The notes under the pieces are model-generated. The model saw nothing but the letters and a program-made list of their open reading frames with translations, was not told the origin of the DNA and made no database searches. From Herbaspirillum rhizosphaerae (GTDB taxonomy: Bacteria; Pseudomonadota; Gammaproteobacteria; Burkholderiales; Burkholderiaceae_D), in the NCBI RefSeq assembly GCF_001189965.1, contig NZ_LFLU01000001.1, forward strand, positions 434,001 to 498,000: a stretch of DNA of 64,000 nt. Direction: 5' to 3'. A program made the position numbers and the translations under genes. Below are positions 30,807 through 44,180 of the stretch, piece by piece; position 1 is the stretch's first letter, and the number at the start of each line of letters is the position of its first letter.

Positions 30807-30937
30807 CGCCCTGTTATGAGTTCATTTTTTGGATGAATCTCGTAAATCCTTGTTGCTCCATTGCTTCTATTCCTGAGGGGGAAATATGTTTTGCATGGTT
30901 GGAGCGACAAATTGCCGAGTTGATGACAGGAGAAGCT

Positions 30938-31542
30938 ATGAGTTTGATTTTGAACAAGGTATTGCAGATTGCAATTGCCGACGACCATCCGGTCGTATTG
31001 AGTGCGTTGAAAAACGAGTTGAGCCGTCTGCCGGAATTTCGCATCGTACTGATGGCGCCGACCGGAGAAAAATTGCTGGAGTCATTGCAACGCACACCGT
31101 GTGAAGTCGTCATCACTGACTTCGCCATGCCGACTGACGACAAGGACGAGTCGGACGGCTTTGTCCTGGTCAAGCGTATCCGTAACGACTATCCGTCGAC
31201 CAAGCTGATCATCTACACCGCGATGAACAACAGCGCGGTAGTGAAACGTCTGTACCGCATGGGTGTGTTTTCGGTGATCAGCAAAAAGGAAAAAACGGAA
31301 GAACTGATTAACGCCTGCCTGGCGACGCAGACGAGCAAGCAGGTCTATTTCCCGGTTTCCTTGCGCGGCGAACTGGAGATGAGCTGGGCACAGGGCGACG
31401 CTTTTACGCAGAACAAGGAATTGACGATGAGCGAACTGGAAGTCGTGCGCTTGTTTGTCGGCGGCAGCTCGCTGAGCGACATCTGCGAACGTCTGTCGCG
31501 CACGCCAAGCACGGTGAGCACGCACAAGAACAACGCCATGCG
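30938..31542 (+). pseudogene. RcsB-like LuxR-type response regulator, N-terminal part (interrupted)
   Basis: Residues 1-201 of a NarL/RcsB-type regulator. The receiver has acidic pair DD at 15-16, phosphoacceptor Asp61 in VVITDFAMP, and lysine in VISKK. The start of the LuxR-type HTH follows (LTMSELEVVRLFVGG, then RTPSTVSTHKNNAM). The match in order and spacing to E. coli RcsB is clear: ADDHP, TDxxMP, a GD-rich insertion after the Asp, and LRLF/VRLF in the HTH. AGGAG is 5 bp before ATG 30938. The frame is cut after the codons for AMR by the island; read-through adds a short foreign tail. The missing 21 codons lie intact at 44055-44123. Joined, the gene would encode about 222 residues. Confidence 0.88.
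31536..31542. repeat. Left copy of 7-bp target-site duplication
   Basis: CCATGCG; identical to 44053-44059. The two copies flank the 12.5-kb island and overlap the same codons of the interrupted regulator gene. Confidence 0.8.
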
Positions 31543-31625
31543 TGCAGGCGACAGTAAATCTTGGACACTGAATCCGGTCTGAGTTGGACACTCAAACCGG
31601 ATCAAGTTGGTCACCTAGTCCAGCA
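31543..31625. repeat. Left terminal repeats of the island (IS21-like)
   Basis: Tip TGCA at 31543; repeats begin at 31562 (TGGACACTGAATCCGG), 31585 (TGGACACTCAAACCGG) and 31608 (TGGTCAC), exactly 23 bp apart. Such arrays are binding sites for the IstA/TnsB/MuA class of transposases. Confidence 0.7.
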
Positions 31626-31694
31626 AGAAACCAACTTCGGCATCGCAAACAGTGTTACGACGCCTGATGCAGAGATTTGGCATCGTGGATGCCA

Positions 31695-32447
31695 TCACTC
31701 TTCCGCGAGTGAATTTTTACCTCGAGTTTTTCGCATCGATTCCCCTTTCAGTTGGATCTTGTATGCCTGATGAACAACTCGGTCCAGCACTGCATCAGCA
31801 ATGGTTGGATCGGGAAAGAATCCATGCCATTTTTCCACCGGGTACTGACTGGTGATGAGCAAAGAGCCTGTCCGCATCCGTCTATCCGCAACATCCAAGA
31901 TGATCTGCGCTGTGAACGGCGTCATCTCACCGATCCCAAAATCATCCAAGATCAGCAATGCAGGCTTATAGAGCGATGCCTTCAGCTTGGGCAGTGAGCC
32001 ATCAAGTTGGGCTTCAACAATTTCTGTGTAAAGATCGCTTGTCCTGTGAAACGCTACTCCCATTTCAAGTCGACATGCTTGCTGCCCAAAGGCAGAAGCA
32101 AGCCATGTCTTGCCTACGCCAGTCGGGCCTATGATCATCAAGTTGAGATGACGGGTGATCCACGCACAGCTAGACAAGGCTGCAATCATCGTTTTATCCA
32201 GCCCACGAGCTGATTGAGTATTCAGGTCTTCAAGCGCTGCAGCTTCAGGAAATTTTGCTGTTTTAATCAGCTTAGTGACCTTTTTCGATTGACGCGATGC
32301 GACTTCTGCATCTAGCAGCATGCCGAGTCTGTCATCGAACATCAATTGGTGTAATTTTGGATTTTGCCCTTGAAGTTCATAGGCGCTCAGCATCGCTGAC
32401 AACTTCAGATCCCGCAAATATCCGACATTTTGATTCTGGGTGCTCAT
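31695..32447 (-). CDS. istB: IS21-family helper ATPase IstB
   Basis: 250-residue AAA+ protein with Walker A GPTGVGKTW and Walker B LLILDDFG, plus the SQYPVEKWHGFF block typical of IstB. IstB is the DnaC-like regulator that activates the IstA transposase and marks the target DNA. It starts 3 bp after the istA stop, the normal istAB arrangement. All motifs are intact and the length is normal, so the pair is probably functional. It is the gene nearest the island's left end. Confidence 0.95.
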   Translation of the reverse strand: MSTQNQNVGYLRDLKLSAMLSAYELQGQNPKLHQLMFDDRLGMLLDAEVASRQSKKVTKLIKTAKFPEAAALEDLNTQSARGLDKTMIAALSSCAWITRHLNLMIIGPTGVGKTWLASAFGQQACRLEMGVAFHRTSDLYTEIVEAQLDGSLPKLKASLYKPALLILDDFGIGEMTPFTAQIILDVADRRMRTGSLLITSQYPVEKWHGFFPDPTIADAVLDRVVHQAYKIQLKGESMRKTRGKNSLAEE

Positions 32448-32450
32448 ATT

Positions 32451-33986
32451 TTAATCCTCAAAGTAGTCGCCACCGCGCAAGTTTTCATGCTCCTCGGGTG
32501 ACGTTGTTGCTGGTGTGGTTGCTGGGCGCAAGTCCGTTTTATTCTTCAGAATTGACTCCATGTTGCGAAGCGTCTTAATGTTGACGGTCAAAGCATAGCC
32601 ACAGGCATGCTCGAAGCGTTCTTCGCCGTATTTCCTGGCCAATTCACGTAAGCGTTGGGCCGTGCGAAGGCCATTGGTGAGATCGTTGCGATCCTCCAGA
32701 TGGTGCACGATCATTCGCTTAGCATTGGCGCCAACTGAGTCTGCCCATTGCAGGAGATCAGCTGGCTCACCTTCGACGACACGCTGATGCGCCACCGGCC
32801 TGTGTTCATCCAGCGTCTGAATCAACCCCGCCTCGCCCTGGAACGAATGCAGTGCGACTCTTCGACCGTTGAAAAATACCTCCAGCGTCTTCGAGTCGTA
32901 CCTCAGATCCACCCGATTTCCAATCAGATGAGACGGCACCGAGTAGTAGCTACCGCCGTGTTCGAGGTGGTAGTCCACATTCACTCGAACTTGGTATCTC
33001 CATTCACACAACTCGAACGCTTTCACCGGCAACGGTCTCAGTTTCATCTTTTCACGCTCTTCGAACCACTTACTGCGAGATCCGGGAAGCTTTTTGAAGG
33101 GATGTGCGTTCAGTTGATCGCACAGATTTCTCAGCTCTTTGTTGAGTTCGTCGATGTCGAAGAAGACGCGATCCCGCAGCTTAAAAAGCATGAATCTTTG
33201 TATGATTTTTACGCCGACCTCAACTTTGCCTTTGTCTTTGGGGCGCCGGCTACGGGCCGGACGCGGTGCGCTGTCGTAGTGAGTCAGGCATTCGCGGTAA
33301 GTCGGGTTAATGACGATCCGGTCACGCTCTCGACGTATCACTGCAGCCTTCAAATTGTCGCTGACGACCCATTTTGGAACACCTTCCATGTACTCAAAGC
33401 ACTTCACATGGCATTCCACCCAACTCGCGATCGTTTGGTCGGGCACCGCGTACACGAAGGTGTAGTTTGAAAATCCCAGCACAGATACGAATATCTGAGC
33501 ATGAATGACGTTCTGGGTATGAGGAATATTGACGGGCACGGTGCGCCCCGCAAAATCCACAAACAGCTTGTCCCCAGGGGTATGAACACGCCGCATCACG
33601 ATGTTCAGCTGCTTTGTGAAACGTCGATAGCTGGTTGTAAATTGGCTATAACCGATCCCATCGGGACATGTTTCACGCCAAGTTTGCCAAAGGCCTTCCA
33701 ATGTCGCATCTTCCCGCTGCATTTCTTCGTGGATCCAATCCCAATCTGGAACGGGCTTATTGACGGCGATGCTGCGGTTATGGGTTCCCAGGGTTGTTCG
33801 CCAACGATGATCGTCGAGAGTCTGAAGCGTCGCCCAGTCCTTCTCAGAGTTCACAAGTGCTTTTCGCAGGACGCCAACAGTAGAAGGTGAGATTCCAAGC
33901 TGATCGGCTATTGAACGGTCGGAACCAGAAATGTCATGAAAATGTAGACGTGCTACGTCTCTTTGTAGGTGAATCGCAAGCCGCAT
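32451..33986 (-). CDS. istA: IS21-family transposase IstA
   Basis: 511-residue DDE transposase. The N-terminal helix-turn-helix (IADQLGISPSTVGVLRKAL) binds the end repeats. The retroviral-integrase fold follows with FVDFAGRTVPV (first Asp), VSDNLKAAV (second Asp) and a downstream DKGKVEVGVKIIQ segment (Glu), then a C-terminal beta-barrel domain. Full length for the family with no frameshift, so likely active. Upstream (33987-34387) there is a 400-bp non-coding stretch where the element's own istA-side end would be expected; no clear 23-bp repeats are visible there. Confidence 0.95.
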   Translation of the reverse strand: MRLAIHLQRDVARLHFHDISGSDRSIADQLGISPSTVGVLRKALVNSEKDWATLQTLDDHRWRTTLGTHNRSIAVNKPVPDWDWIHEEMQREDATLEGLWQTWRETCPDGIGYSQFTTSYRRFTKQLNIVMRRVHTPGDKLFVDFAGRTVPVNIPHTQNVIHAQIFVSVLGFSNYTFVYAVPDQTIASWVECHVKCFEYMEGVPKWVVSDNLKAAVIRRERDRIVINPTYRECLTHYDSAPRPARSRRPKDKGKVEVGVKIIQRFMLFKLRDRVFFDIDELNKELRNLCDQLNAHPFKKLPGSRSKWFEEREKMKLRPLPVKAFELCEWRYQVRVNVDYHLEHGGSYYSVPSHLIGNRVDLRYDSKTLEVFFNGRRVALHSFQGEAGLIQTLDEHRPVAHQRVVEGEPADLLQWADSVGANAKRMIVHHLEDRNDLTNGLRTAQRLRELARKYGEERFEHACGYALTVNIKTLRNMESILKNKTDLRPATTPATTSPEEHENLRGGDYFED

Positions 33987-34387
33987 GGGCTCCTTTCACG
34001 CAGCGCACGAGTTTTGCGTTGCATTAGGATGAGTGTCCCCATTCGCCTCACTATTGACATGTGAGGCGTTGCGGCCGATACTCGCGCCATAGATCCCTCG
34101 ATCTTCGGCTGCGGCCGACGAAAGAGCCCGAGTTTGCCGACTCGGGCTTTTTGCGTTTTGGGGGTGGATAAACGTAGCGTAGTTTCCTCTGTGGATAACC
34201 TCCTTAGTGTGCTCAAAAATGAGCCTATTGATTGATTAGGTTGGCGAATCCACCGTCCAGGGTGCTGAATCGGTGTTCACCGTGCCAAACCGAACTCCAA
34301 ATCGCTGAAACGCTGCCGAGATGCAATTTGGTCATGAATCCTAATAAATCTCGGGGGTCGAAACTACTAGGTTAGATGGACACTTGA
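33987..34387. other. Non-coding stretch upstream of istA
   Basis: No gene found. It holds one good hairpin terminator (34125-34152, listed separately), a GGTGTTCACCGTGCC segment at 34273-34287 that resembles sequences near ends of other IS21 elements (from memory), and a lone TGGACACTTGAAT at 34377-34389 resembling one unit of the island's end repeats. The istA-side boundary of the insertion sequence could not be fixed. Confidence 0.4.
34125..34153 (+). terminator. Rho-independent terminator upstream of istA
   Basis: Perfect 9-bp stem AGCCCGAGT (34125-34133) / ACTCGGGCT (34140-34148), 6-nt loop, then TTTTT. It has no gene directly upstream on its strand and may block read-through from outside into the cargo. 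Confidence 0.7.
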
Positions 34388-35314
34388 ATGCCGTTTTATC
34401 TTGAGGACGCGAATCTTTCGCTTTTGACTGAGTTGGAAGCTTCCGTTTTGCGCGCGATCGCCGACGAGATTGGGGAGAACGTAGTTAACCCCTCAATGGC
34501 GCTAACTTTGATTCGACGCTTCTTGACGCCGTTGCTTGCAGCAGAGCAGCATGACTTGCTACGTGTTGTAGGCCAGCCTTCTTGGGACCGCATCCACACC
34601 CTATATCCTCAGTTGGCGTTTGCTAGTAATAAAGGCGCGGATCGGCAGCTACTTGCCGCGGCGACCCTGGTACACCTACTTTTTCTGCACACCACTCGCC
34701 CACCGAGAGACGTGCAATTCCCGCCTTTTGTCGAATTGTCATCTTTTAGGCGTGTTGCCGGGTACTTGAAGCTTCCCGTGGTCCCCCTCTCCGTGCAGGT
34801 AGGGGAGCATCAATTAGATCTCTATAAATTTTGCCAATACTGCTGGTTGCCGGCGAGAGCGCGAGATTTATGTGCGCTTCATTCGATAAAGCCCGGGAAC
34901 CTCGGGCGTTTTGGGAAGCAATCCGCGTGCGGATATACCACTCAGAAGCAAGGGCAGCGTTTAAAGGAGTTGTTCAATGGGTGCACTCATGCATTCGTCT
35001 CGCAAGAGGAGCTTGATTTCCATGAGTCGGATTTTGCTTTGCCCTTCATGCTCCCCCCATCTGGGCTCGCGGCATGGCTCTTGGAGCGCCGGCCTTTTAT
35101 AGGGGGCATGTTCGCGCAGCGCCACACCCCCGAGGCGAATCCCTTGGACACATTACTTTCAATCTTGTATGGGTCTCAGGGCGATTTGGTAGCGGAATCT
35201 ATTGGCGGAGCGGTGCACCTTCTCACCCCCATAACTGCAAGGGCGGAAGGCTGGATGACGGCTTGGAACGTACGTCCAAGCCATGGTGGCAATCGCAGAA
35301 AATTGTCAGTCTGA
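34388..35314 (+). CDS. Unrecognised protein with a Cys/His cluster
   Basis: 308 residues, not recognised. The N-terminal half is helical and Leu-rich. The centre has a likely zinc site FCQYCWLPARARDLCALHS (C-x2-C-x8-C-x2-H, residues about 151-166), after which come Gly/Lys/Arg-rich residues. No signal peptide or membrane helix. Zinc clusters of this spacing occur in DNA-binding proteins of mobile elements, so an island accessory or regulator is possible, but nothing ties it to a named family. It is the first cargo gene after istA and its 3' end overlaps the convergent Xre regulator gene by 9 bp. Only a weak ribosome site is visible. Confidence 0.55.
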   Translation: MPFYLEDANLSLLTELEASVLRAIADEIGENVVNPSMALTLIRRFLTPLLAAEQHDLLRVVGQPSWDRIHTLYPQLAFASNKGADRQLLAAATLVHLLFLHTTRPPRDVQFPPFVELSSFRRVAGYLKLPVVPLSVQVGEHQLDLYKFCQYCWLPARARDLCALHSIKPGNLGRFGKQSACGYTTQKQGQRLKELFNGCTHAFVSQEELDFHESDFALPFMLPPSGLAAWLLERRPFIGGMFAQRHTPEANPLDTLLSILYGSQGDLVAESIGGAVHLLTPITARAEGWMTAWNVRPSHGGNRRKLSV

Positions 35315-35584
35315 AAACTTAATGGTTTCTGACAGTATTTTGTTGCAGAAGGTCTCAGCGTCGACGTTCTCTATCTTGCAGTACGCCATGGTCAAAAGAG
35401 TAACGGGATGAACACCTATTACTGAAGCAATTTCTTCAAGCTTGTCCAATGTAGGTGATTTTATGCCTCGTTCGAGTGTACTCAGATAAGTACGGCTCGA
35501 AACGTCCGAAAAATCCTCCTGGGTCAATTCCTGTTGTTTCCGAGTCTCTCGGAGCGCGGCAGCAAATCCTTCTCGCAACTTCAT
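35306..35584 (-). CDS. Xre-family HTH regulator
   Basis: 92 residues. A complete Cro/C1-type HTH domain: FAAALRETRKQQELTQEDFS, VSSRTYLSTLERGIKSPTLD, then IASVIGVHPVTLLTMAY. Start set at ATG 35584 because AGGAG lies 8 bp upstream; in-frame ATGs at 35617 and 35653 have no ribosome site and lie over the operator dyads. The gene is divergent from a small unknown gene at 35678 with about 90 bp between them containing two inverted repeats, so it likely represses its own and that promoter. Small single-domain Xre proteins of this kind commonly control island or phage genes. Confidence 0.85.
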   Translation of the reverse strand: MKLREGFAAALRETRKQQELTQEDFSDVSSRTYLSTLERGIKSPTLDKLEEIASVIGVHPVTLLTMAYCKIENVDAETFCNKILSETIKFSD

Positions 35585-35588
35585 ATAA

Positions 35589-35607
35589 CAGTCTCCTAAA
35601 GAGACTG
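35589..35607. promoter_or_regulatory. Operator dyad 1 of the Xre regulator
   Basis: Perfect inverted repeat CAGTCTC-N5-GAGACTG. The arm nearest the gene overlaps the Shine-Dalgarno of the Xre gene, so a bound protein, or a hairpin in the mRNA, would block translation start. Confidence 0.55.
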
Positions 35608-35619
35608 ATGTACTCATTT

Positions 35620-35652
35620 TGAACACTTTAGAGCTACAATCTATAGTGTTCA
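35620..35652. promoter_or_regulatory. Operator dyad 2 between the divergent genes
   Basis: Perfect 8-bp inverted repeat TGAACACT (35620-35627) / AGTGTTCA (35645-35652) with a 17-bp spacer, midway between the Xre gene and the divergent small gene. Confidence 0.5.
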
Positions 35653-35677
35653 TTTATTCGTTTTCAGGAATACACCC

Positions 35678-35920
35678 ATGAAGAAAGGCGAGATTCGGCC
35701 ATTTTCCATCTACATCGGACATGGCGGTGTCATTAGAAAAGTGAAATCCATCAGCATGGCGGTGGATGGCAGTCTGTTTGTCCAATGGCGCCTGATTCGG
35801 TCCCGCGGACAGTCGGAAGAGCCAGCTGAATCCATACAACCTATCGATGAATTCGCAAGATGGGCGAAGGCATTGAAACAGACGCTATCTAAAGATTTAG
35901 AACATCACCTGAGCAAGTAA
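35678..35920 (+). CDS. Small unknown protein divergent from the Xre regulator
   Basis: 80 residues, soluble, mixed charge; no family recognised. Segments such as RPFSIYIGHGGVIRKVKSIS and VDGSLFVQWRLI suggest a small beta-rich domain followed by a C-terminal helix (FARWAKALKQTLSKDLEHHL). AGGAA is placed just before the ATG. Its promoter region is shared with the Xre repressor and contains a perfect dyad, so it is probably under that repressor's control. Confidence 0.55.
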   Translation: MKKGEIRPFSIYIGHGGVIRKVKSISMAVDGSLFVQWRLIRSRGQSEEPAESIQPIDEFARWAKALKQTLSKDLEHHLSK

Positions 35921-35971
35921 TAGATGCGTGTCAACACGCTCTCATACGTCCTAAGAAAGTAACCAAGAAAA

Positions 35972-36298
35972 ATGGATAAGACCCAATGCCCGCATTGTGA
36001 GAAGAATTGCGTCCCAAAATTGTGGCACTACCGGCCAGCCTTTGGCGCCCTCCGATACATGGCGACACAGCACCTATGCCCGTTTTGCGGGGGCGTCATG
36101 TATCAGTCTGGCGGACAACTGACGATCTTTGGCTGGTTGGTGGTTATCGTGGCCGGCACGATCTTCGGCATAGGCTTCATCGCCCAGCTGTTTAAAAGCC
36201 AGGACATCACGGAGGTGTTCATTGGCCTAGGCTCTTTGGCCTTCTGGGGATTTATCGCCTACCAGCTGTACAAGCGATTTTCGGGACGTAGACGGTAA
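35972..36298 (+). CDS. Zinc-ribbon membrane protein of unknown function
   Basis: 108 residues. Two cysteine pairs at the N-terminus (CPHC and CPFC, about 28 residues apart) make a probable zinc ribbon. Two membrane helices follow (FGWLVVIVAGTIFGIGFIAQL and VFIGLGSLAFWGFIAYQLY), ending in a basic tail (YKRFSGRRR) that should stay in the cytosol. Zinc ribbon plus two-helix proteins of this size are common, uncharacterised membrane proteins. It follows the small unknown gene by 51 bp on the same strand. Confidence 0.6.
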   Translation: MDKTQCPHCEKNCVPKLWHYRPAFGALRYMATQHLCPFCGGVMYQSGGQLTIFGWLVVIVAGTIFGIGFIAQLFKSQDITEVFIGLGSLAFWGFIAYQLYKRFSGRRR

Positions 36299-36381
36299 AG
36301 AGTAAGGCCGCTGAGACTGGAAATTACCCCGACTGTGAACGGATTTAGTCAGCAGCCACTCCGTCGACGATCAAGGAACCA

Positions 36382-37059
36382 ATGACTCAATACCCGAACA
36401 TGATGAAAAACACGATGTATCGCGTACTCATGTGCGCTATCTGCTTGCTTACGGTCACCGCTTGCAAAAAAGATGGGAAACCATCCGACGATACGGCAAA
36501 GCTGACCTTGGATCAGTACTACGCAAAACGCGGCGATCTTTGCCTCTATGTCGGCAAGTTCCCAGTCGATATCAGTCCTCGGGACCTGAATCCTTCCATT
36601 ATGGAGATCATGAACGACGGCCTACCAGCGCAACTAAGTGCCTTGGAAAATGCGGGCTTAGTGGGGCGTAGTTCGATGAACGTCAGCGCCGGCGGGAATT
36701 TTGGCGCCCAAATGTCAGTAGTACGCTTCACGGTCACGGATCTAGGGAACAAGTTCTTTGGTACGAAACCTCGTGAAGCTTACGCGATGGGTGGATGGAT
36801 TGACGTGAATCGCCCTGAGTTCTGTTACGGTAAATTCGTCCTGGATAAGGTCGAATCAATCACAGAAATTGAGGGCAAAGACAGCAAGAGAACGGCCGAG
36901 GTCAAGTACGTCGTTCGTACTGATAACGTGGCCGGCTGGGCATCCAATAAGAAAATTCAGGATGCCTTTCCTGAAGTCAAAAGCGTACTGAAGAGCGCCA
37001 CAGTTGAAGTTACTAAGACGCTTACTCCAGTCAATGGCGACTGGAAAGTCGAAAATTAA
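36382..37059 (+). CDS. Unknown lipoprotein
   Basis: 225 residues. The N-terminus carries a lipoprotein signal with lipobox LTVTAC (Cys28) followed by KKDGKP. Two or three clustered start codons are possible; ATG 36382 has AAGGA 4 bp upstream. The mature part contains two cysteines (DLCLYVGKFP and PEFCYGKFVLD) and repeated beta-strand-like stretches ending VNGDWKV. No family recognised. It is one of four small unknown genes lying head to tail between 35678 and 37935. Confidence 0.6.
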   Translation: MTQYPNMMKNTMYRVLMCAICLLTVTACKKDGKPSDDTAKLTLDQYYAKRGDLCLYVGKFPVDISPRDLNPSIMEIMNDGLPAQLSALENAGLVGRSSMNVSAGGNFGAQMSVVRFTVTDLGNKFFGTKPREAYAMGGWIDVNRPEFCYGKFVLDKVESITEIEGKDSKRTAEVKYVVRTDNVAGWASNKKIQDAFPEVKSVLKSATVEVTKTLTPVNGDWKVEN

Positions 37060-37169
37060 TCCGTGGTCAGTTCATCAATTCAAGATCCGCTCTCATCCAA
37101 ATACGTGTCACGTATATAGCGGGACCTGGGTCTGTGCCTGACATGGACGTTTATTAGCGTGGTCTTCCT

Positions 37170-37619
37170 ATGAACATTCCATATGTCGCGCCAGAGGTGC
37201 GCACTACACTTCCTGTTTCAAGATGGGCTGTTAGTGAGTTGATTTTGCGTATGCAGAATCACGGAAGTGATGCTGACGTCTTAGGCGCGCTCGAAGCCCA
37301 TTGCTTATATGGGATAAAAAAGCGTGGCGCGGATGCCGTCTCCGACTTCCCTGCATGGCAATTTATTTGGCCGGCGCCTTATTTGATCAAAAAAATCTTG
37401 CCACATCTTTCTGAAAAGCCAGGATCTGAGATACACATATTCTGGACCGTTCAACGCGATGAACTCAACGAACTGTCGCCGGCGGAGGTTCTCGCCGGCA
37501 TGCCGTATGAAACGCGCGAGTTTATCGATGAATGTCAAAGAAAGTACATGGTGCAAACGAGCCAAGAGCGCGTAAAACGGCTACTTTCCGTGGTTAAGAA
37601 CTTAGACGTCTATTTATAG
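37170..37619 (+). CDS. Unknown cytosolic protein
   Basis: 149 residues, no signal or membrane segment. The C-terminal half (FWTVQRDELNELSPAEVLAG followed by MPYE and a helical tail) faintly resembles the ELxGLSPxEAL pattern of DUF2384/MbcA-type antitoxin tails, too weakly to name it. The codon usage and AT content match the rest of the island. It is followed by a strong Shine-Dalgarno (AAGGAGG at 37621) belonging to the next small frame. Confidence 0.5.
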   Translation: MNIPYVAPEVRTTLPVSRWAVSELILRMQNHGSDADVLGALEAHCLYGIKKRGADAVSDFPAWQFIWPAPYLIKKILPHLSEKPGSEIHIFWTVQRDELNELSPAEVLAGMPYETREFIDECQRKYMVQTSQERVKRLLSVVKNLDVYL

Positions 37620-37631
37620 AAAGGAGGCTGC

Positions 37632-37694
37632 ATGAGGTACTTCCAGCTCGAAGATAGCTGCCGTCAATTCAATCGGGGTCACTATGGATATTGA
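37632..37694 (+). CDS. Possible 20-codon leader peptide
   Basis: Starts with ATG 5 bp after a perfect AAGGAGG and encodes MRYFQLEDSCRQFNRGHYGY. Its stop overlaps the first codons of the next gene (ATG 37684). That gene has no good ribosome site of its own, so translational coupling is plausible. No similarity recognised. Confidence 0.35.
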   Translation: MRYFQLEDSCRQFNRGHYGY

Positions 37695-37935
37695 CTTGGA
37701 TATCGCTTTTAAGAAGCTACGTCAGATGGAATTAGAGGGCGGAGACCTGGGCGCCACCTATTGGCATCAGGTCGCAATGTTGTTGCGAGATGCAGACCAA
37801 CTTCGCACTCGAGCACTCGCTGCAGAGGAGCAGCTTAGGAAGGTCCGTAGTCGAAAAACTAAACGGATACTAAATTCACGCTTTGATCCCCCCGTCGGTT
37901 CTGAACGCTACTTACTTAAGCGATTTTCACCGTGA
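37684..37935 (+). CDS. Small unknown coiled-coil protein
   Basis: 83 residues. The middle is a probable helix or short coiled coil (VAMLLRDADQLRTRALAAEEQLRKVRSRKTK), preceded by an acidic N-terminus and followed by a basic tail. No family recognised. It may be translated through coupling with the 20-codon frame that overlaps its start. About 150 bp of non-coding sequence follows before the end of the convergent CBASS effector gene; no hairpin was seen there. Confidence 0.45.
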   Translation: MDIDLDIAFKKLRQMELEGGDLGATYWHQVAMLLRDADQLRTRALAAEEQLRKVRSRKTKRILNSRFDPPVGSERYLLKRFSP

Positions 37936-38084
37936 ATGAACACCCGCGCTTGTCGCACACATTGAATAATCTCGCCTACCTACGGCAAAATCAAACAAAT
38001 AGAGCGTCTCAGTGTTGGCAAGCGATCGTACTGACGACAAATCCCATTGGTTTGGGCTTAGTGAAATAGAAATTGCGCTGTCGT

Positions 38085-38597
38085 TTATTTGGGCACCTGT
38101 CCATCAATGTCGAAATCATAAGCTCCCGATTTTATTTTCTTCTGAGCTTTCTTAAAATACCCGTCTGGAACAGGAGGACTAGAGGCGCGCGCGTCATCCA
38201 TTCGATCCATGAGAGCATGAAATTCCTCTTCCAGAGCATCGATAGAATCGTTAGCTTTGATTTTTGCGGCCTGCCGGAACCTATCTTGAAGGACTTTGAA
38301 ACGGTGGGCACTATCGGCAATAGTTTTCAAACTAATGTCGAGTTCTAATGCCTTAAATATCGCCGGGAACAATCCGGCTAGCATGGCGCTAATGGCAATT
38401 ACCCAGTCGTACGTAGGGTCCCGCACCAATATTCGAGCGCTAGCAACTGCCCCCGCAATGATCGGCACAACGATAAAAATAACCCGCCAAAAACGAACTC
38501 TCTTGAGCCACTCGTAAAGAGCCGTTGAAGTGTAAAGGCACGAATCTTCTTGCCTCTTGCATTCTTTGATGATTTCTTGCAAACGTGCATCCATCAT
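38085..38597 (-). CDS. SLATT-type two-TM effector of a CBASS system
   Basis: 170 residues. Charged N-terminal helix, then two membrane helices (RVIFIVVPIIAGAVASARIL and WVIAISAMLAGLFPAIFKAL) and a long C-terminal cytosolic helical part (VLQDRFRQAAKIKAND and onward). This is the layout of SLATT domains (SMODS and SLOG-associating 2TM effector), predicted to form membrane pores or otherwise damage the membrane when a nucleotide messenger appears. Start at ATG 38597, which overlaps the CD-NTase stop by 4 bp (ATGA) with AAGGA 5 bp upstream; an earlier in-frame ATG at 38636 would overlap the first gene by 43 bp. Tight coupling to the synthase supports the CBASS call. The activating nucleotide is unknown. 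Confidence 0.8.
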   Translation of the reverse strand: MMDARLQEIIKECKRQEDSCLYTSTALYEWLKRVRFWRVIFIVVPIIAGAVASARILVRDPTYDWVIAISAMLAGLFPAIFKALELDISLKTIADSAHRFKVLQDRFRQAAKIKANDSIDALEEEFHALMDRMDDARASSPPVPDGYFKKAQKKIKSGAYDFDIDGQVPK

Positions 38598-39661
38598 GGA
38601 TTCCTTGGAATGTTGGGTCCAAAAATCATCTGCCACATTTCACCCGCGTCATTCATCGCATTATCCCTCTCGAATCCGCACGCCAAATCGGCACGCCTGT
38701 ATGCACTTTCCGCCTTACTTTTCCAATCATTTCCCAGCCAGAACAACTCACTCATGTTAGGAGCGACGAGGTAAGTGTTTGCCTTTTTAACCATCCATTC
38801 GAAGAAGTCCCTGCAAATCCAGTCGTAGTAGAAATGGTCTTGATGGCGCCAGGCGCATTGATCCAAGAACTCGATCGCAAGCAATTCCAGGTAAAACGAC
38901 TTTATAGGCACCGAGCACCAATCTTGCCAAACTTTAAGCATTCGGATCAAAGGACGGACATTATTGGCATTGCGCTGATCGGCTGTATTAATTGCGACGG
39001 CTTCGTCCCCCGGTCTTGTCTTCTTATACGCGCCGCCATCCTTTGTATCGCAAACAAAATAAGCGTGTTCTTCTGTGAGCGCGAACGCCGGCACGATCTC
39101 AATGCTGAAGCTCTCAAATGCCGCCAGCACAACCGGACCGTCCCCCTTAATGGCGCTACCCGGGTACTTTGCAAGTAGTTTTCCCTTCACCTCCTGCAGT
39201 AATGCCGACTGTCTATAGCCTTGGTAGGTCTCAAAGCGGTGATAGACCGCAGCCGGCAGCAAAAAATACAGGTCGACGTCACGAGGTGGCCGAACTCGAG
39301 TTCCTTTTGCCCAAGAGCCGATAAGAAAGGCGTTTTCCGTTTCCGATCCGTGTCCATAATATGCCCAGTTCAGGCATGCGATGACGCCTCGACACTTCCT
39401 CTGCCCATCCGTGATCTGATGCGTTGTGAGCTCGATATTGCTCAGAAACTGAGTGAAGCGACGCGTAACATAGCGCCAGGAAAGCGAGGGTGGGAATGCC
39501 AAGGCATTTGGCGTGGTCGATGGAGATGCGCTAGAAAGCCCCCCAAGCAGTGTAGGAGATGCAAGCCTGGCCAGGCTATTAAGAGCTGGTGGATTAGGCT
39601 CAGGCCACGTTCCAAGCAGAGTCGAAGCAGGAAGAAAACTATTCCAAGGCGATTCAGACAT
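38594..39661 (-). CDS. CD-NTase (SMODS-type cyclic oligonucleotide synthase) of a CBASS system
   Basis: 355 residues. The catalytic core has the nucleotidyltransferase signature LIGSWAKGTRVRPPRDVDLY, with Gly-Ser at 115-116 and the metal aspartates D128 and D130. The third acid is probably E188 in FSIEIVPAF. The C-terminal helical part (NNVRPLIRMLKVWQDW) fits the family. CD-NTases sense phage infection and make cyclic di- or trinucleotides that switch on a linked effector, here the SLATT protein, leading to cell death before phage release. GGAG is 5 bp before the ATG. There is no ubiquitin-like (Cap2/Cap3), HORMA/TRIP13 or nuclease gene next to it, so this is a minimal two-gene (type I) arrangement. 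The first 60 residues are unusually Pro/Ser/Leu-rich and may be a linker or a misplaced start. Confidence 0.85.
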   Translation of the reverse strand: MSESPWNSFLPASTLLGTWPEPNPPALNSLARLASPTLLGGLSSASPSTTPNALAFPPSLSWRYVTRRFTQFLSNIELTTHQITDGQRKCRGVIACLNWAYYGHGSETENAFLIGSWAKGTRVRPPRDVDLYFLLPAAVYHRFETYQGYRQSALLQEVKGKLLAKYPGSAIKGDGPVVLAAFESFSIEIVPAFALTEEHAYFVCDTKDGGAYKKTRPGDEAVAINTADQRNANNVRPLIRMLKVWQDWCSVPIKSFYLELLAIEFLDQCAWRHQDHFYYDWICRDFFEWMVKKANTYLVAPNMSELFWLGNDWKSKAESAYRRADLACGFERDNAMNDAGEMWQMIFGPNIPRNP

Positions 39662-39680
39662 GCGACCTCCATTTGAGAAG

Positions 39681-39700
39681 CACTGATTAAATATACAGTA
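39681..39700 (-). promoter_or_regulatory. LexA-box candidate in the CBASS promoter
   Basis: CACTGATTAAATATACAGTA has CTG-N10-CAG and matches 16 of 20 positions of the LexA consensus TACTGTATATATATACAGTA. It ends 20 bp before the CD-NTase start codon and overlaps a -10 candidate (TATATT on the minus strand) that has an ATGACA -35 candidate 18 bp upstream, so LexA bound here would block transcription. Confidence 0.6.
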
Positions 39701-39756
39701 AAACTACTGTTGTTGTCATCCAGTACACTTAAATGCGACATCTTGCCTCCAACGGA

Positions 39757-39828
39757 TGCATATTTCGGAGGCTCGTGGACACTCAATTCGGTTTGATTTG
39801 GACGCTCAGACAGGATCGAACTGGACAG
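39757..39828. repeat. Internal IS21-like end, same orientation as the island's left end
   Basis: Tip TGCATATT at 39757, then TGGACACTCAATTCGG at 39776, TGGACGCTCAGACAGG at 39799 and TGGACAGC at 39822, again 23 bp apart. The distance from tip to first repeat (19 bp) equals that of the left end at 31543, and the repeats align to it at about four positions in five. The right end of the island also starts TGCATATT on the opposite strand. So 39757..44052 may be a unit of its own. Confidence 0.65.
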
Positions 39829-39862
39829 CGCGGCGACTACCTGAGCAGAGCGACGCGTCAGA

Positions 39863-39890
39863 AGTCCGTTATTGGCCGGAAGCGGACAAG
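39863..39890. repeat. GTCCGCTT-type interspersed repeat, copy 1
   Basis: GTCCGTTATTGGCCGGAAGC, followed by GGAC: an imperfect dyad with GTCCG / CGGAC arms around a TGGCCG core. Similar copies lie at 40589 and 43363. Confidence 0.45.
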
Positions 39891-39896
39891 TCTCAC

Positions 39897-40514
39897 TTAG
39901 GACGAGCGCTTGGCCGTGGCAAGGAAGATGCCCAAGAAAATCATGGTTACACCTGAAATGCGGGCCATCATACGTGCCCGGGCCAGCCGAAGTTGCTCGG
40001 ATAAGAGAATCCGCGCGGCGGCAAACACTGCTATGACATCGACCAGCGTGTTGAGCAGAACGCAGATGCCGCCCAGAAAGGCGACTTGTTCCGTCATAGA
40101 GATATTAGCCGAGACGAATTGAGGCAAAAATGCCAGGAAGAACAGTGCAGTCTTGATATTCAAAGCCTCGACAACGATTCCCTCTGCCAACGCGCGTTTC
40201 CAACCTTGCGCCACTGCGCGACTGGCATCCAAACGTTCGTTTTTTCGACGAAGTAGCTGAATGCCGAGGAAAACCAGATAAGCGGCGCCAATGAATTTAA
40301 TGGCATTGAAAGCAATGGCGGACTTCGCGACGATAAGCGACAAACCGAGTGCCGCCGCCAACACGTGCAGCAATCCCCCCACAGCGGTGCCGATGCAGGA
40401 TGCCAAACCTTCAACGCGGCCTCCTGACACAGTTTTCGCAACGACATACGCAATGCCCGGTCCCGGCGTGATGGCAAGAATAGACGCAGCAATAACAAAG
40501 GTAATTAAGGACAT
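39897..40514 (-). CDS. LysE/RhtB-family exporter
   Basis: 205-residue inner-membrane protein with six hydrophobic segments. The N-terminal ITPGPGIAYVVAKTVSGG is the diagnostic first-helix motif of the LysE/RhtB family. Most members export amino acids; the wider LysE superfamily also includes metal exporters. It is divergent from a TonB receptor gene, and the 164-bp intergenic region contains a NikR-like operator near the receptor gene. A link to nickel or its chelator (for example histidine) is therefore conceivable but unproven. It lies directly inside the internal IS21-like end. Confidence 0.85.
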   Translation of the reverse strand: MSLITFVIAASILAITPGPGIAYVVAKTVSGGRVEGLASCIGTAVGGLLHVLAAALGLSLIVAKSAIAFNAIKFIGAAYLVFLGIQLLRRKNERLDASRAVAQGWKRALAEGIVVEALNIKTALFFLAFLPQFVSANISMTEQVAFLGGICVLLNTLVDVIAVFAAARILLSEQLRLARARMMARISGVTMIFLGIFLATAKRSS

Positions 40515-40588
40515 GGCATCAATCGTAGAGGAAGTCGTCAGATTTTACCGTTGAAGGCCGATTGTAGAGATAGACGGGCAATCCCTGA

Positions 40589-40617
40589 TGTCTGCTCCTG
40601 GCCGATTGGTGACATTG
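40589..40617. repeat. GTCCGCTT-type interspersed repeat, copy 2 (degenerate)
   Basis: TGTCTGCTCCTGGCCGATTG, followed by GTGACATTG; shares the TGTCxGCT...TGGCCGATTG core with the copy at 43363. Confidence 0.35.
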
Positions 40618-40640
40618 CTTTATGGCATAACACTTGCTAA

Positions 40641-40667
40641 GTATGATAAATTTAAAAAATATCATAC
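40641..40667. promoter_or_regulatory. NikR-type operator of the TonB receptor gene
   Basis: Perfect inverted repeat GTATGATA (40641-40648) / TATCATAC (40660-40667). The core GTATGA-N15-TCATAC is the E. coli NikR operator (GTATGA-N16-TCATAC) with one spacer base fewer. It ends 11 bp before the receptor start and nikR is the next gene, so nickel-dependent repression is the straightforward reading. Confidence 0.75.
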
Positions 40668-40678
40668 AGGGAGGGTAA

Positions 40679-42733
40679 GTGTTTTACGCAAAGAAGAAAA
40701 TGGCCCTAGCCATTCTGGCCGCGAGCCAGGGATTTCATGCCGCCTACGCCGCCGAAGGCGATGGCCTCGCCCCAATTGAAGTCGTCGGCAATTACGACAA
40801 TGCCATTGGTAGCTCGAATGCCGCAAGCCAAGGCACAGTCAACAGCTCATTGATTGCAACTCGTCCGATATTGAGAACCGGTGAAATCCTGGAATTCGTG
40901 CCAGGCATGATCGTTACTCAACACAGTGGCGACGGGAAAGCCAACCAGTATTTCCTGCGTGGTTTCAATCTGGACCACGGCACCGACTTTGCCACCTTTA
41001 TTGATGGCATGCCGATTAACATGCGCACGCACGCTCATGGCCAAGGCTACACCGATCTGAACTTCATCATTCCAGAGCTGGTGGAACGTATCGATTACAA
41101 GAAAGGCCCGTATTTTTCCGATGAAGGCGATTTTGCCTCTGCAGGTGCCGCCCACATGAGGTTGGCCAACACGCTGCCAGAAGGTATTGCCTCCGTTTCG
41201 ATAGGTGGACATGGCTATCAGCGTGCGCTGTTGGCGGATTCACTCTCCCTGGGAACTGGTAATCTGCTCTATGGCCTGGAAGTCACTCGCAATAATGGTC
41301 CTTGGGATGTGGCGGAAGGACTCCGCAAATACAGCGGTACGCTGCGCTATAGCGGTGGCACGCGGGCAGACGGTTATGAGGTCACGGCTATGGCCTATAG
41401 CAATCGCTGGAACTCGACCGACCAGATTCCTTCCCGTGCAGTGCAATCAGGACAGATTGGCCGTTACGGCTCGTTGGCCCCTACGGACGGCGGTGATACT
41501 TCGCGCTACAGCCTGTCCTATGCAATGCACAAGCGGGATGACAATGGGCTGTTCCAGCTCAACGCCTACTTGATCCAGTCGAAACTGGATCTCTATAGCG
41601 ATTTCACTTATTTACTGAGCAATCCGACCGCCGGTGATCAGTTCCATCAGGCAGAGAAGCGCCGCATTGCCGGTTTTGAGGCCAGCCAGACCTTGTTCGG
41701 CAAGCTGGCAGGTGTGGACATGACCAACAAATTTGGCATGCAAGTTCGTTATGACTGGCTATCGCCGGTCGGTCTGTACAGCACCACCGCACGACAACAA
41801 ACCAGCGTGGTCAGCGAAAGCAACGTGCGCGAAGGAAGTATTGGTCTGTTTGCCGAAAACACCATGCAATGGCTGGACAAATTCCGCACTATCGCCGGTA
41901 TCCGTTACGACGCCTATCGGTTCAACGTTAATAGCAGCATCGCTAGTAATTCAGGCACCGCCAACGATCATATCGTCTCGCCTAAGCTTTCTCTGATCTT
42001 TGGCCCTTGGGCAAAGACGGAATACTTCATTAATTACGGCAGCGGCTTCCACAGTAACGATGCCCGTGGCACGACACAGACACGCTTACCCAACGGGGAT
42101 CCGGCTTCGCCGGTCACGCCTTTGGTGCGAACCAAGGGATACGAAGTCGGCACCCGCACCGAAATTGTGCCGGGCCTGCAAAGTTCGCTGGCCCTCTGGC
42201 GATTGGATATCGATTCCGAACTGGTGTTTGTGGGTGATGCGGGAGAGACACAGCCTAGCCGTGCCAGTAAGCGCTATGGGGTCGAATGGAACAATCACTA
42301 CGTCGCCAATTCCTGGTTGATGTTTGATATCGATCTGGCCGCCTCACGCGCTCGCTATACACAGGACGATCCTGTCGGCAACTACATTCCCGGTTCGATC
42401 AATAAAGTAGCTTCATTTGGCGTAACGCTGAACGATCTTGGCCGCTGGTCGGGGGCATTCCAACTGCGTTACTTCGGCCCGCGTCCGCTGATCGAAGATA
42501 ACAGCGTGCGCTCCCAATCAACCACGCTGGCTTATGCTCGCGTGGGCTACAAGGTCGATACGAAGACGAAACTTAGCTTGGATATTTTCAACTTATTCAA
42601 CCGTCAGGCCAGCGATATCGACTACTACTATCCGTCGCGGTTGGCAGGCGAACCGGCTGAAGGGATTAACGACATTCACTTCCATCCGGTTGAGCCCCGT
42701 ACTTTCCGTCTCACGCTCACTCGCAACTTCTGA
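40679..42733 (+). CDS. TonB-dependent outer-membrane receptor, probably for nickel
   Basis: 684 residues. Start GTG 40679, preceded by GGGAGGG. Signal peptide MFYAKKKMALAILAASQG with cleavage after AYA. The plug domain starts IEVVGNYDN and contains YFLRGFNLDHGTDFATFIDG, the usual LRGF core. A 22-strand barrel follows, ending in the C-terminal motif RTFRLTLTRNF with terminal Phe. Histidines lie in the plug (INMRTHAHGQGYTD) and near the C-terminus (INDIHFHPVEP). Together with the NikR box in front and nikR behind, this points to TonB-driven uptake of nickel or a nickel chelate. Iron or cobalt remain possible. Its TonB/ExbBD partners are elsewhere. Confidence 0.85.
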   Translation: MFYAKKKMALAILAASQGFHAAYAAEGDGLAPIEVVGNYDNAIGSSNAASQGTVNSSLIATRPILRTGEILEFVPGMIVTQHSGDGKANQYFLRGFNLDHGTDFATFIDGMPINMRTHAHGQGYTDLNFIIPELVERIDYKKGPYFSDEGDFASAGAAHMRLANTLPEGIASVSIGGHGYQRALLADSLSLGTGNLLYGLEVTRNNGPWDVAEGLRKYSGTLRYSGGTRADGYEVTAMAYSNRWNSTDQIPSRAVQSGQIGRYGSLAPTDGGDTSRYSLSYAMHKRDDNGLFQLNAYLIQSKLDLYSDFTYLLSNPTAGDQFHQAEKRRIAGFEASQTLFGKLAGVDMTNKFGMQVRYDWLSPVGLYSTTARQQTSVVSESNVREGSIGLFAENTMQWLDKFRTIAGIRYDAYRFNVNSSIASNSGTANDHIVSPKLSLIFGPWAKTEYFINYGSGFHSNDARGTTQTRLPNGDPASPVTPLVRTKGYEVGTRTEIVPGLQSSLALWRLDIDSELVFVGDAGETQPSRASKRYGVEWNNHYVANSWLMFDIDLAASRARYTQDDPVGNYIPGSINKVASFGVTLNDLGRWSGAFQLRYFGPRPLIEDNSVRSQSTTLAYARVGYKVDTKTKLSLDIFNLFNRQASDIDYYYPSRLAGEPAEGINDIHFHPVEPRTFRLTLTRNF

Positions 42734-42740
42734 TCTCGCT

Positions 42741-42770
42741 TTGACCAGGCCAGTGCTACATTGCTATCAT
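42741..42770 (+). promoter_or_regulatory. Promoter candidate of nikR
   Basis: -35 TTGACC (42741-42746) and -10 TATCAT (42765-42770), 18-bp spacer, 28 bp before the nikR start. nikR can therefore be transcribed on its own as well as by read-through from the receptor gene. Confidence 0.4.
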
Positions 42771-42798
42771 CCTTGCAATACTACCTTGGAGAATGGCA

Positions 42799-43254
42799 AT
42801 GCAGCGCTGGACAATTTCAGTTGACGACGACCTGGCGGAGGACTTTGACCGGTTCGTAGCCAGCAAGGGGTATTCCAATCGCTCTGAAGCTTTCCGCGAT
42901 TTGGCGCGCAAGGAATTAGGTCAAACTGATGTTGAGGAAGGAACGGCCAAATGGTGCGTCGCGACGGTCAGCTACATATACGATCACCATGAACGCATGC
43001 TTGCGAATCGCCTAACTCAAATCCAGCACGATCATCATGATGTTGCGGCTGCCTCGCAGCATGTCCATCTCGATCATGACAATTGTTTGGAGACGGTCAT
43101 TTTGAAAGGCCGTATTGATGAAGTCCGCGCTTGCGCCGATGCCATCATTTCGCAGACCGGAGTGCGGCATGGGAACGTCCACATCGTTCCAGTCGAGATG
43201 AAGAAGGAGAAATACGTACGGGTTGGGCACATACACTTACATCCTAAGTCCTAA
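42799..43254 (+). CDS. nikR: Nickel-responsive regulator NikR
   Basis: 151 residues. N-terminal ribbon-helix-helix DNA-binding domain (MQRWTISVDDDLAEDFDRFV) and C-terminal ACT-like nickel domain. The four high-affinity Ni ligands of E. coli NikR (H76, H87, H89, C95) are matched by H77, H88, H90 and C96. Start at 42799: GGAG lies 8 bp upstream, versus 2 bp for the ATG at 42793, and family members begin MQR. NikR represses nickel uptake genes when nickel is sufficient; the perfect dyad in front of the TonB receptor is its likely target. No nikABCDE or urease genes are in the window. Confidence 0.95.
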   Translation: MQRWTISVDDDLAEDFDRFVASKGYSNRSEAFRDLARKELGQTDVEEGTAKWCVATVSYIYDHHERMLANRLTQIQHDHHDVAAASQHVHLDHDNCLETVILKGRIDEVRACADAIISQTGVRHGNVHIVPVEMKKEKYVRVGHIHLHPKS

Positions 43255-43361
43255 TGCCAGAGCTAGTAGTGGGGCTGCAGGTATCACCGTCGCCAAGGAT
43301 TTCACTTGTGACTTAACAACGTTCAAAAGCGCTGCATATTGCGGGGCCTTTGAATGTTCAG

Positions 43362-43387
43362 ACGTCCGCTTCTGGCCGATTGCGGAA
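43362..43387. repeat. GTCCGCTT-type interspersed repeat, copy 3
   Basis: CGTCCGCTTCTGGCCGATTG, followed by CGGAAG. It lies in the non-coding stretch 43255-43412, which shows nothing else. Confidence 0.4.
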
Positions 43388-43412
43388 GTAGGCTATGGTA
43401 AAGGTGTTCGAC

Positions 43413-43616
43413 CTATCCCTCCCGGTCAATCGCCTCCTTGGCCTCCATGGTTGCATATTGAAGGGCATCCTGACGGTGCTTTATCGGTGCACGTCGAGGT
43501 GACTCCAAGCGACTACCTGCAATATCCGTGTGCCAGAGCCAGCCGTCACCCGTCAGCGGTTGCATCATTTGGATACTGACTTGCTTTCCCTTGTATTCGA
43601 ATAGCTCGCCAGCCAT
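43413..43616 (-). CDS. Small unknown protein
   Basis: 67 residues, soluble. The pattern MAGELFEYKGKQVSI, a WLWHTDI block and a C-terminal Ala/Asp/Glu helix (DALQYATMEAKEAIDREG) resembles small Burkholderiales proteins of unknown function (the DUF6566 type), from memory. A GGGGG ribosome site is just upstream. It starts 17 bp after the stop of the next small gene on the same strand, so the two form a mini-operon at the right edge of the island. Confidence 0.5.
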   Translation of the reverse strand: MAGELFEYKGKQVSIQMMQPLTGDGWLWHTDIAGSRLESPRRAPIKHRQDALQYATMEAKEAIDREG

Positions 43617-43633
43617 GGTGCATCCCCCCGAGG

Positions 43634-43867
43634 TTAGTCTTTCTTGGCAACCAGGATGAAATCTTGAATCACTCCCACAGTTCGCTCCATAAATTCACGC
43701 GCGTCTTCCGAAGGGGAGAGATTTTCCTCAATGGAATCAAGCTGTCGCTGAAGGAGTATTTGAAAAAGGCGTGCTTGCTCAGGAGGCTGGACTGCGCAAA
43801 GCGAATAAAGCACAGCTTTCATACCTGTAATTTCCGCTCGCACTTTGTCAAATTCAGCATTTATCAT
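43634..43867 (-). CDS. Small unknown helical protein
   Basis: 77 residues, predicted all-helical (EFDKVRAEITGMKAVLYSLC, then QARLFQILLQRQLDSIEENL). GGGAG lies 6 bp before the ATG. No family recognised. It is the first gene of a two-gene operon reading away from the island's right end. Confidence 0.5.
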   Translation of the reverse strand: MINAEFDKVRAEITGMKAVLYSLCAVQPPEQARLFQILLQRQLDSIEENLSPSEDAREFMERTVGVIQDFILVAKKD

Positions 43868-43991
43868 CCGCTTCTCCCTTTGGATTTACCTTGAGGACAG
43901 TATAGCGGTTGAGTTAGATGGCGTCTCTTGGCGGATAGCAAATGTAATGTAGCTAGAAAAAACAAGCCTATTCACTTGGTCGACTGTCCGC

Positions 43992-44052
43992 GTTGCTGAA
44001 CAATCGATGTCCATGTTGTTGAACTACGTGACCAAATTCACTGGAATATGCA
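43992..44052. repeat. Right terminal repeats of the island
   Basis: On the minus strand from 44052: tip TGCATATTCCAGTGAATT, then TTGGTCAC, and TGGACA-type units at roughly 21-23 bp spacing (TGTCC at 43989 and 44012, TGACC at 44033 on the plus strand). TTGGTCAC-N-TAGT-N-CA-N-CAA matches the inner unit of the left end at 31607. Confidence 0.6.
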
Positions 44053-44059
44053 CCATGCG
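44053..44059. repeat. Right copy of 7-bp target-site duplication
   Basis: CCATGCG, identical to 31536-31542. Confidence 0.8.
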
Positions 44060-44123
44060 CAAACTGGGGCTGTCGACCGATGCCGACCTGATCAAGTACG
44101 CTTATGCGACGGGGATGCTCTGA
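44053..44123 (+). pseudogene. RcsB-like response regulator, C-terminal end (separated by the island)
   Basis: Codons from ATG 44055 read MRKLGLSTDADLIKYAYATG, then ML and TGA at 44121-44123. This is the missing end of the LuxR-type HTH domain: E. coli RcsB has AMMKLGVENDIALLNY at the same place. The left part of the gene ends in NNAMR at 31543, so the frame is continuous once the island is removed. The original terminator follows directly. Confidence 0.88.
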
Positions 44124-44149
44124 GTAGTGGCGGCATTTGCAGCGTCGAG

Positions 44150-44180
44150 GCCTGTTCACTGAAAAGTGAGCAGGCTTTTT
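44150..44180 (+). terminator. Rho-independent terminator of the interrupted regulator gene
   Basis: GCCTGTTCACT (44150-44160) / AGTGAGCAGGC (44165-44175), GAAA tetraloop, then TTTTT. Confidence 0.85.

What the first reader, a model, noticed from the sequence alone, without database searches (positions are those of the whole stretch)
39897..43254. Mobile nickel-uptake module with a NikR operator of altered spacing
TonB receptor preceded by a perfect GTATGATA/TATCATAC dyad and followed by nikR with all four nickel ligands. The operator core spacing is 15 rather than the E. coli 16. NikR control of TonB receptors is known in Helicobacter, but a mobile receptor-nikR-LysE unit appears unusual, and the LysE-family gene shares the control region.
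Basis: partly seen in the sequence, partly recalled or inferred. Interest (0 to 1): 0.65.

Follow-up and report, generated by a model that had tools for sequence, protein, structure and literature searches.

The report
Transposon-borne NikR-controlled nickel receptor pair
A bacterium carries, inside a jumping DNA segment, a predicted outer-membrane nickel receptor next to its own nickel-sensing switch; this is a known kind of pair with ordinary spacing of the switch's binding site, so it is mostly ordinary, with one unusual promoter hint worth a test.

Summary
A perfect GTATGA-N15-TCATAC dyad (40641-40667) stands 11 bp before a TonB-dependent receptor (40679-42733), followed by nikR (42799-43254) with the four nickel ligands. 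It is the only exact N15 site in the 5.27-Mb assembly. N15 is usual: 23 of 26 perfect dyads in 80 named nikR loci; 29 of 40 receptors within 1.5 kb of nikR have N15 at 10/12 or better. Print gives N13/14 between heptamers (= N15/N16) for enterobacteria and 15 nt for Helicobacter. Receptor-nikR pairs occur in alpha-, beta- and gammaproteobacterial loci and on plasmids. The unit is mobile: a 12,510-bp insertion (31543-44052) with a 7-bp target duplication splits a response-regulator gene; two relatives have the empty site. LysE is not part of the module: homology with a relative stops at 40623, and LysE is missing from nearly all related loci searched. Most novel open reading: a sigma-54-like element 3 bp before the operator.

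The parts
40641..40667 (.). NikR operator, perfect GTATGA-N15-TCATAC dyad
   Evidence: same spacing upstream of nikR-linked relatives
40623..40638 (+). sigma-54-like -24/-12 element TGGCATAACACTTGCT ending 2 bases before the operator (hypothesis)
   Evidence: consensus recalled
40679..42733 (+). TonB-dependent receptor, predicted importer of Ni2+ or a Ni-chelate
   Evidence: Plug and barrel domains; AlphaFold pLDDT 87 and TonB-receptor fold; 46% identity to the pHCG3 receptor beside nikR
42741..42770 (+). predicted own sigma-70 promoter of nikR, TTGACC-18-TATCAT
   Evidence: TTGACC kept in 4 of 8 aligned relatives: L065, L067, L068, L069
42799..43254 (+). nikR, nickel-responsive RHH repressor
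39897..40514 (-). LysE-family exporter gene, neighbour, not part of the module
   Evidence: missing from related loci
31543..44052 (.). 12,510-bp insertion carrying the module; TTGG(A/T)CAC repeats at both ends
31536..31542 (+). left copy of 7-bp target duplication CCATGCG
44053..44059 (+). right copy of 7-bp target duplication CCATGCG
31695..33986 (-). IS21-family istB and istA inside the left part of the insertion
30833..31542 (+). 5' part of the split response-regulator gene
44053..44124 (+). 3' part of the split response-regulator gene

Best explanation
A nickel-uptake cassette: a TonB-dependent outer-membrane receptor that brings Ni2+ or a Ni-chelate into the periplasm, and the nickel-sensing repressor NikR, made from its own promoter. 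When cytoplasmic Ni2+ is enough, Ni-NikR binds the single N15 operator in the receptor's promoter/leader region, just before its ribosome-binding site, and shuts the receptor off; when nickel is short, the receptor is made. No NiCoT-type (NicO) permease was found in this host; a UreJ/HupE permease in a urt-urease cluster is a candidate inner-membrane partner, and urease a likely nickel consumer. The cassette sits on a transposon-like 12.5-kb insertion. Shown: sequences, spacing, conservation, insertion, empty site. Inferred: nickel as substrate, repression, partner permease, arrival by transfer.
For: NikR with its ligands; unique perfect operator at the receptor; N15 operators upstream of 29 of 40 receptors within 1.5 kb of nikR (66; the window is one of the 40); in relatives such operators also stand before a NiCoT gene (G142, L065 9859-9885, 19 bp before the listed ORF start) or between divergent NiCoT and receptor (G252, L209), which ties the regulon to nickel uptake; receptor homologues near hydrogenase genes, a HoxN-type permease or nikR on pHG1, pHCG3 and a Paraburkholderia plasmid; two strong urease-alpha matches and UreJ in the genome, no NicO match; four His invariant and one 98% kept in 53 receptors; insertion with target duplication and empty sites.
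Against: No expression, binding or uptake data. Receptor homologues (E<=1e-60) are in 139 of 245 family genomes but nikR in 34 of 245, so the receptor family as a whole is not tied to NikR. 10 of 40 nikR-linked receptors show no N15 or N16 site at 10/12 (66); the pHG1 homologue and the Paraburkholderia plasmid pair show none at N15-N17 in the stretches read. Substrate could be cobalt or another metal chelate. No inner-membrane nickel importer was recognised in the insertion among the proteins scanned. NikABCDE and CbiM-type importers and hydrogenases were not searched for in the host.
Confidence: 0.85

Rival explanations
1. The control region is bidirectional: NikR also controls the divergent LysE-family gene, making an import/export unit.
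For: LysE start is 126 bp from the dyad; in G142 the gene divergent from the receptor is another TonB receptor followed by solute-binding-protein and ABC-permease genes, and in G252 it is NiCoT, with two operators in between.
Against: Only one dyad here, next to the receptor; no sigma-70-like site on either strand in 40480-40720, which says nothing for LysE or the receptor; module homology to G142 ends at 40623, leaving LysE outside; LysE is closest, below cut-off, to homoserine/threonine exporters and not a NicO protein; not kept with the pair.
Confidence: 0.06
2. The receptor takes up cobalt, cobalamin or another metal chelate and its substrate is not nickel.
For: Best sequence matches in the PDB are BtuB, weak (2.5e-07); fold matches include PqqU, FecA, FyuA and OprC; the relatives' cluster in print is labelled nickel, cobalt.
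Against: NikR operators and nikR/NiCoT/hydrogenase neighbours point to nickel.
Confidence: 0.12
3. The insertion is a decaying remnant and the pair no longer works.
For: No site-specific integrase among the insertion proteins scanned; no NiCoT beside nikR here, unlike several congeners; low GC (0.51 against 0.60).
Against: Receptor and nikR frames intact, operator perfect, ligands intact.
Confidence: 0.08

Closest known systems
Predicted nickel/cobalt TBDTs Bll6948, Daro_3944, RPA_4757, pHCG3_081, Daro_1684 (PMC3400609, table passage; Daro_3944 and Bll6948 marked as predictions from Rodionov 2006 in PMC7142613, passages; Rodionov 2006 itself not held)
   Same: Homologous to the pHCG3 receptor (46%), which has nikR alongside and a NikR-type operator
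   Different: The pHCG3 pair is divergent with an N16 site (11/12) on a hydrogenase plasmid; here the genes are co-directional with N15 on a transposon-like insertion. That pHCG3_081 is OCA5_RS17450 of that record is my inference; the other members were not compared
Helicobacter pylori NikR control of FrpB4/FecA3 (PMC7055735 and PMC5385501, passages; title of a cited paper)
   Same: NikR acts on outer-membrane receptors for nickel; half-sites 15 nt apart
   Different: Other half-site sequence and a regulon of many genes; the receptors were not compared here
E. coli NikR-nikABCDE
   Same: Half-sites GTATGA/TCATAC (PMC7055735, passage); NikR 45-47% identical in E. coli records
   Different: N16 spacing; ABC importer instead of an outer-membrane receptor
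Same-genus genome G142, locus L065
   Same: Receptor 90%, NikR 86-89%, operator N15 (11/12), same order
   Different: NiCoT downstream with its own operator; divergent neighbour is a TonB receptor with solute-binding-protein and ABC-permease genes after it

Membership tests
NikR nickel-responsive regulators | RHH DNA-binding domain plus NikR_C | tested here: met
   NCBIfam: above cut-off for two of three equivalog models, below for the third and for two subfamily models
NikR nickel-responsive regulators | 3 His + 1 Cys high-affinity nickel site | tested here: met
   H77, H88, H90, C96 (E. coli numbering recalled)
NikR nickel-responsive regulators | operator of GTATGA-type half-sites 15-16 apart at a target promoter | tested here: met
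NikR nickel-responsive regulators | Ni-dependent DNA binding | not testable with these tools
   needs purified protein
Nickel TonB-dependent transporters | plug domain and TonB-receptor barrel fold | tested here: met
   domains, model and fold matches; strands not counted
Nickel TonB-dependent transporters | homology to a predicted Ni TBDT and linkage to nickel genes | tested here: met
Nickel TonB-dependent transporters | TonB-energised nickel uptake | not testable with these tools
   needs an uptake assay
Transposon-like insertion | target duplication and empty site | tested here: met
IS21-family mobile element | the whole 12.5 kb moved by the resident istA/istB | tested here: inconclusive
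   istAB inside; repeats at both ends, those of the right end partly degenerate, ends 14 of 30 identical without gaps; own right end of the IS not resolved

The most novel reading that the evidence does not exclude
The receptor is driven by a sigma-54 promoter (TGGCATAACACTTGCT, 40623-40638) whose start site is covered by the NikR operator, so that it is made only when an enhancer-binding activator, such as a nitrogen regulator, is active AND nickel is short. This would link nickel capture to urease, whose cluster with ureJ in the same genome has a sigma-54-like site (11/12) 57 bp before a urea-transporter-like gene. Support: GG/GC spacing exact, 10/12 to the recalled consensus; G142 keeps a 9/12 site at the same distance to the operator; homology to G142 begins exactly at this element; no sigma-70 match; 10/12 sites occur about 0.05 per kb per strand in the 80 named loci. 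Against: found post hoc; across 54 upstream regions 4 reach 10/12 (1.8% in mononucleotide shuffles) and 11 reach 9/12 (9.4% in shuffles), and only these two stand right before the operator; G252 has a sigma-70-like promoter instead (by eye); no upstream activator site seen by eye.
Probability: 0.25. Interest if true: 0.5.

Novelty: new member of a known kind. Interest (0 to 1): 0.3.

Why it matters
It is a simple NikR case (one exact N15 operator found in the assembly, one receptor, one regulator) on mobile DNA, useful for asking how a nickel receptor works with a permease encoded elsewhere, and for the operator-spacing question: N15 prevails in these loci, N16 occurs in two alphaproteobacterial receptor loci, one Rhodocyclaceae MAG and E. 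coli, with the same half-sites. As a discovery it is modest: NikR control of nickel receptors is in print for Helicobacter, a nickel/cobalt role is predicted in print for relatives of this receptor, and both spacings are in print.

Tried and rejected
Altered spacing: rejected. LysE as part of the unit: rejected. Integration into tRNA-His: at first suspected because the island ends close to tRNA-His; rejected, since the insertion splits the response-regulator gene and that gene's 3' end lies between insertion and tRNA. No direct repeat of 16 nt or more was reported in 28000-45000. nikR autoregulation: no dyad was seen before this nikR, which has a promoter-like site of its own; in two named loci (L139, L142) a perfect N15 dyad does lie about 100 bp before nikR, so autoregulation may occur elsewhere. 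Measuring whether the conserved His of the receptor form a site: not possible, no coordinates are given.

Limits of the counts: the loci overlap in part (same genomes under unnamed and named handles); one search removed duplicates by upstream sequence. 30 of the 40 loci show a nikR match; the other 10 were chosen for the receptor, for a fragment, or gave no match. One search lists 139 genomes but its match table was cut. Plasmid receptor list: 30 of 49 records shown; nikR list: 53 of 53; 7 of those 30 are also in the nikR list, compared by eye. The LysE searches used this LysE as query, so unrelated exporters were not counted. The sigma-54 consensus, IS21 traits, activator motifs and E. coli ligand numbers are recalled.
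Full report
What is there. The dyad at 40641-40667 is exact, occurs once in the window with none in 100 shuffles, and at one place in the 5,266,109-base assembly. Allowing one mismatch in GTATGA-N15-TCATAC adds two sites, with less AT-rich spacers. It ends 11 bp before the GTG start of a 684-residue TonB-dependent receptor (40679-42733), with a Shine-Dalgarno-like GGAGG between. nikR follows 65 bp after the receptor and has both domains and the four ligand positions. It has a promoter-like site of its own, TTGACC-18-TATCAT, with TTGACC kept in 4 of 8 aligned relatives; no dyad was seen before it.

Whose genome. NZ_AJVC01000001.1 (Herbaspirillum sp. GW103) has the same length as a contig of the same-genus genome G059 (357,191 bases), so I take the window's genus to be Herbaspirillum (inference). 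nikR is patchy there: matches in 13 of 34 genus genomes, the host included, one of them a 29-residue fragment and one with a stop inside. The six genomes closest by the flanking DNA (G250, G233, G247, G249, G152, G251) have no match. The receptor was found (E<=1e-60) in 2 of 18 same-genus genomes of the draw; two congeners outside that draw carry relatives beside or near nikR (71% and 49%).

Spacing. In 80 named nikR loci there are 26 perfect 12/12 dyads with spacing 8-24: 23 at N15, 2 at N16, 1 at N21. In 45 distinct receptors from nikR-bearing loci (the window's included), 16 have a perfect N15 dyad within about 400 bp upstream, 1 a perfect N16, none any other spacing from 10 to 22. At 10/12 or better it is 30 of 45 for N15, 2 for N16 and 0 to 5 for each other spacing, which is the background; of the 40 receptors within 1.5 kb of nikR, 29 have N15 and 30 have N15 or N16. 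The two N16 receptors are alphaproteobacterial (Nitrospirillum L181, Afipia pHCG3 L185), but the second perfect N16 dyad is in a Rhodocyclaceae MAG (L130), so the split by class is not clean. The spacing is therefore ordinary.

The pair is common. Receptor and nikR lie in the same fetched stretch (within about 8 kb) in 27 of 80 named loci, among them Methylophilus, Noviherbaspirillum, Variovorax, Ideonella and Nitrospirillum. On plasmids: Afipia carboxidovorans pHCG3, typed conjugative, with hydrogenase genes; a Comamonadaceae plasmid, a Paraburkholderia plasmid with a HoxN-type permease between and a Methylomagnum plasmid, these three typed non-mobilizable. The Comamonadaceae and Methylomagnum pairs have an N15 site (11/12); the Paraburkholderia one shows none at N15-N17. 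Cupriavidus pHG1 has a related receptor 4.4 kb from its HoxN-type gene, with no such operator in the stretch read. The receptor family is wider than NikR: 139 of 245 family genomes against 34 of 245 for nikR.

LysE. The LysE query hit 0 of 40 related loci (30 of them hold nikR), 2 of 80 named loci at 31-32%, over 3 kb from nikR, and among 33 other genus genomes, at E<=1e-30, only a fragment in G251, which has no nikR match. DNA homology between window and G142 covers 40623-43220, that is promoter region, operator, receptor and nikR, and leaves LysE out. The adjacency is best read as local to this insertion.

Mobility. Against G250 and G233, DNA matches run to 31542 and resume at 44053, overlapping by 7 bp in the relative; CCATGCG stands in both copies here. 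In both relatives the stretch is uninterrupted and close to tRNA-His. The LuxR-type domain at the gene's end is complete in G250 (2-57 of 57) and cut here (2-43 of 57). The insertion is 12,510 bp, starts and ends with TGCA, with TTGG(A/T)CAC at positions 19, 42 and 65 of the left end and 18 of the right end, then weaker copies at 39 and 62 (three hits of the weaker grade at such spacing arise in 1067 of 20,000 shuffled pieces). It holds IS21 istA/istB, a CBASS-type cyclase with a 2TM effector, LysE, receptor and nikR. GC is 0.51 against 0.60 outside.

Function in this host. No NicO/NiCoT match (the same model scores 366 bits on the G142 permease), two strong urease-alpha matches and two marginal ones, and a UreJ permease in a urt-ure cluster. 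In G142 the NiCoT gene next to nikR has an N15 operator (11/12) 19 bp before its listed ORF start; in G252 two perfect operators stand between divergent NiCoT and receptor. So the relatives' regulon is nickel uptake, and here only the outer-membrane half was recognised on the insertion. The receptor model is good (pLDDT 87.0, pTM 0.86) and matches TonB receptors of many substrates, so the fold does not name the substrate.

Promoter hint. 40623-40638 fits a sigma-54 -24/-12 element (10/12 to a recalled consensus) right before the dyad; G142 has 9/12 at the same distance. The pattern TGGCAY-N5-TTGCW is found twice in the window, 0.23 expected, and 4 of 100 shuffles also give two. A site of 11/12 stands 57 bp before a urea-transporter-like gene of the urt-urease cluster of this genome. 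Across 54 upstream regions, 4 reach 10/12 (1.8% in shuffles), and only the window and G142 have one of 9/12 or better next to the operator. I hold it as a hypothesis. A library search for NikR with RpoN listed mostly Helicobacter papers (listing only; none read for this point), so I make no claim that it is new in print.

Verdict. By sequence a NikR-controlled nickel-receptor cassette on mobile DNA; known kind, ordinary spacing, LysE incidental.

Noticed in passing
38085-39661: CD-NTase (SMODS) and 2TM/SLATT effector genes, an apparent short CBASS phage-defence pair, in the same insertion as the nickel cassette.
   Followed up: partly
40623-40638: Sigma-54-like -24/-12 element directly before the NikR operator.
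   Followed up: partly
L065 1160-5967: In G142 the gene divergent from the nickel receptor is a second TonB receptor, followed by an SBP_bac_5 protein with a His-rich N-terminus and an ABC permease: a candidate nickel-chelate import operon sharing the control region.
   Followed up: partly
L207 1655-1670: Sigma-54-like site 57 bp before a urea-transporter-like gene of a urt-urease-ureJ cluster of the host.
   Followed up: partly
G207:C18:364258-364341: A 29-residue nikR-like fragment (64%) in a congener, perhaps a remnant of a lost nikR.
   Followed up: no
34388-35314: 308-residue protein with a CxxC motif next to the IS21 genes; no match in Pfam, NCBIfam or PADLOC.
   Followed up: no
42799-43254, NikR residues 133-151: His-bearing C-terminal tail beyond the end of E. 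coli NikR; H144 is invariant in the 16 sequences of A1.
   Followed up: no
40697-40716, minus strand: Terminator-like hairpin on the minus strand at the start of the receptor gene (1 found, 0.1 expected).
   Followed up: no
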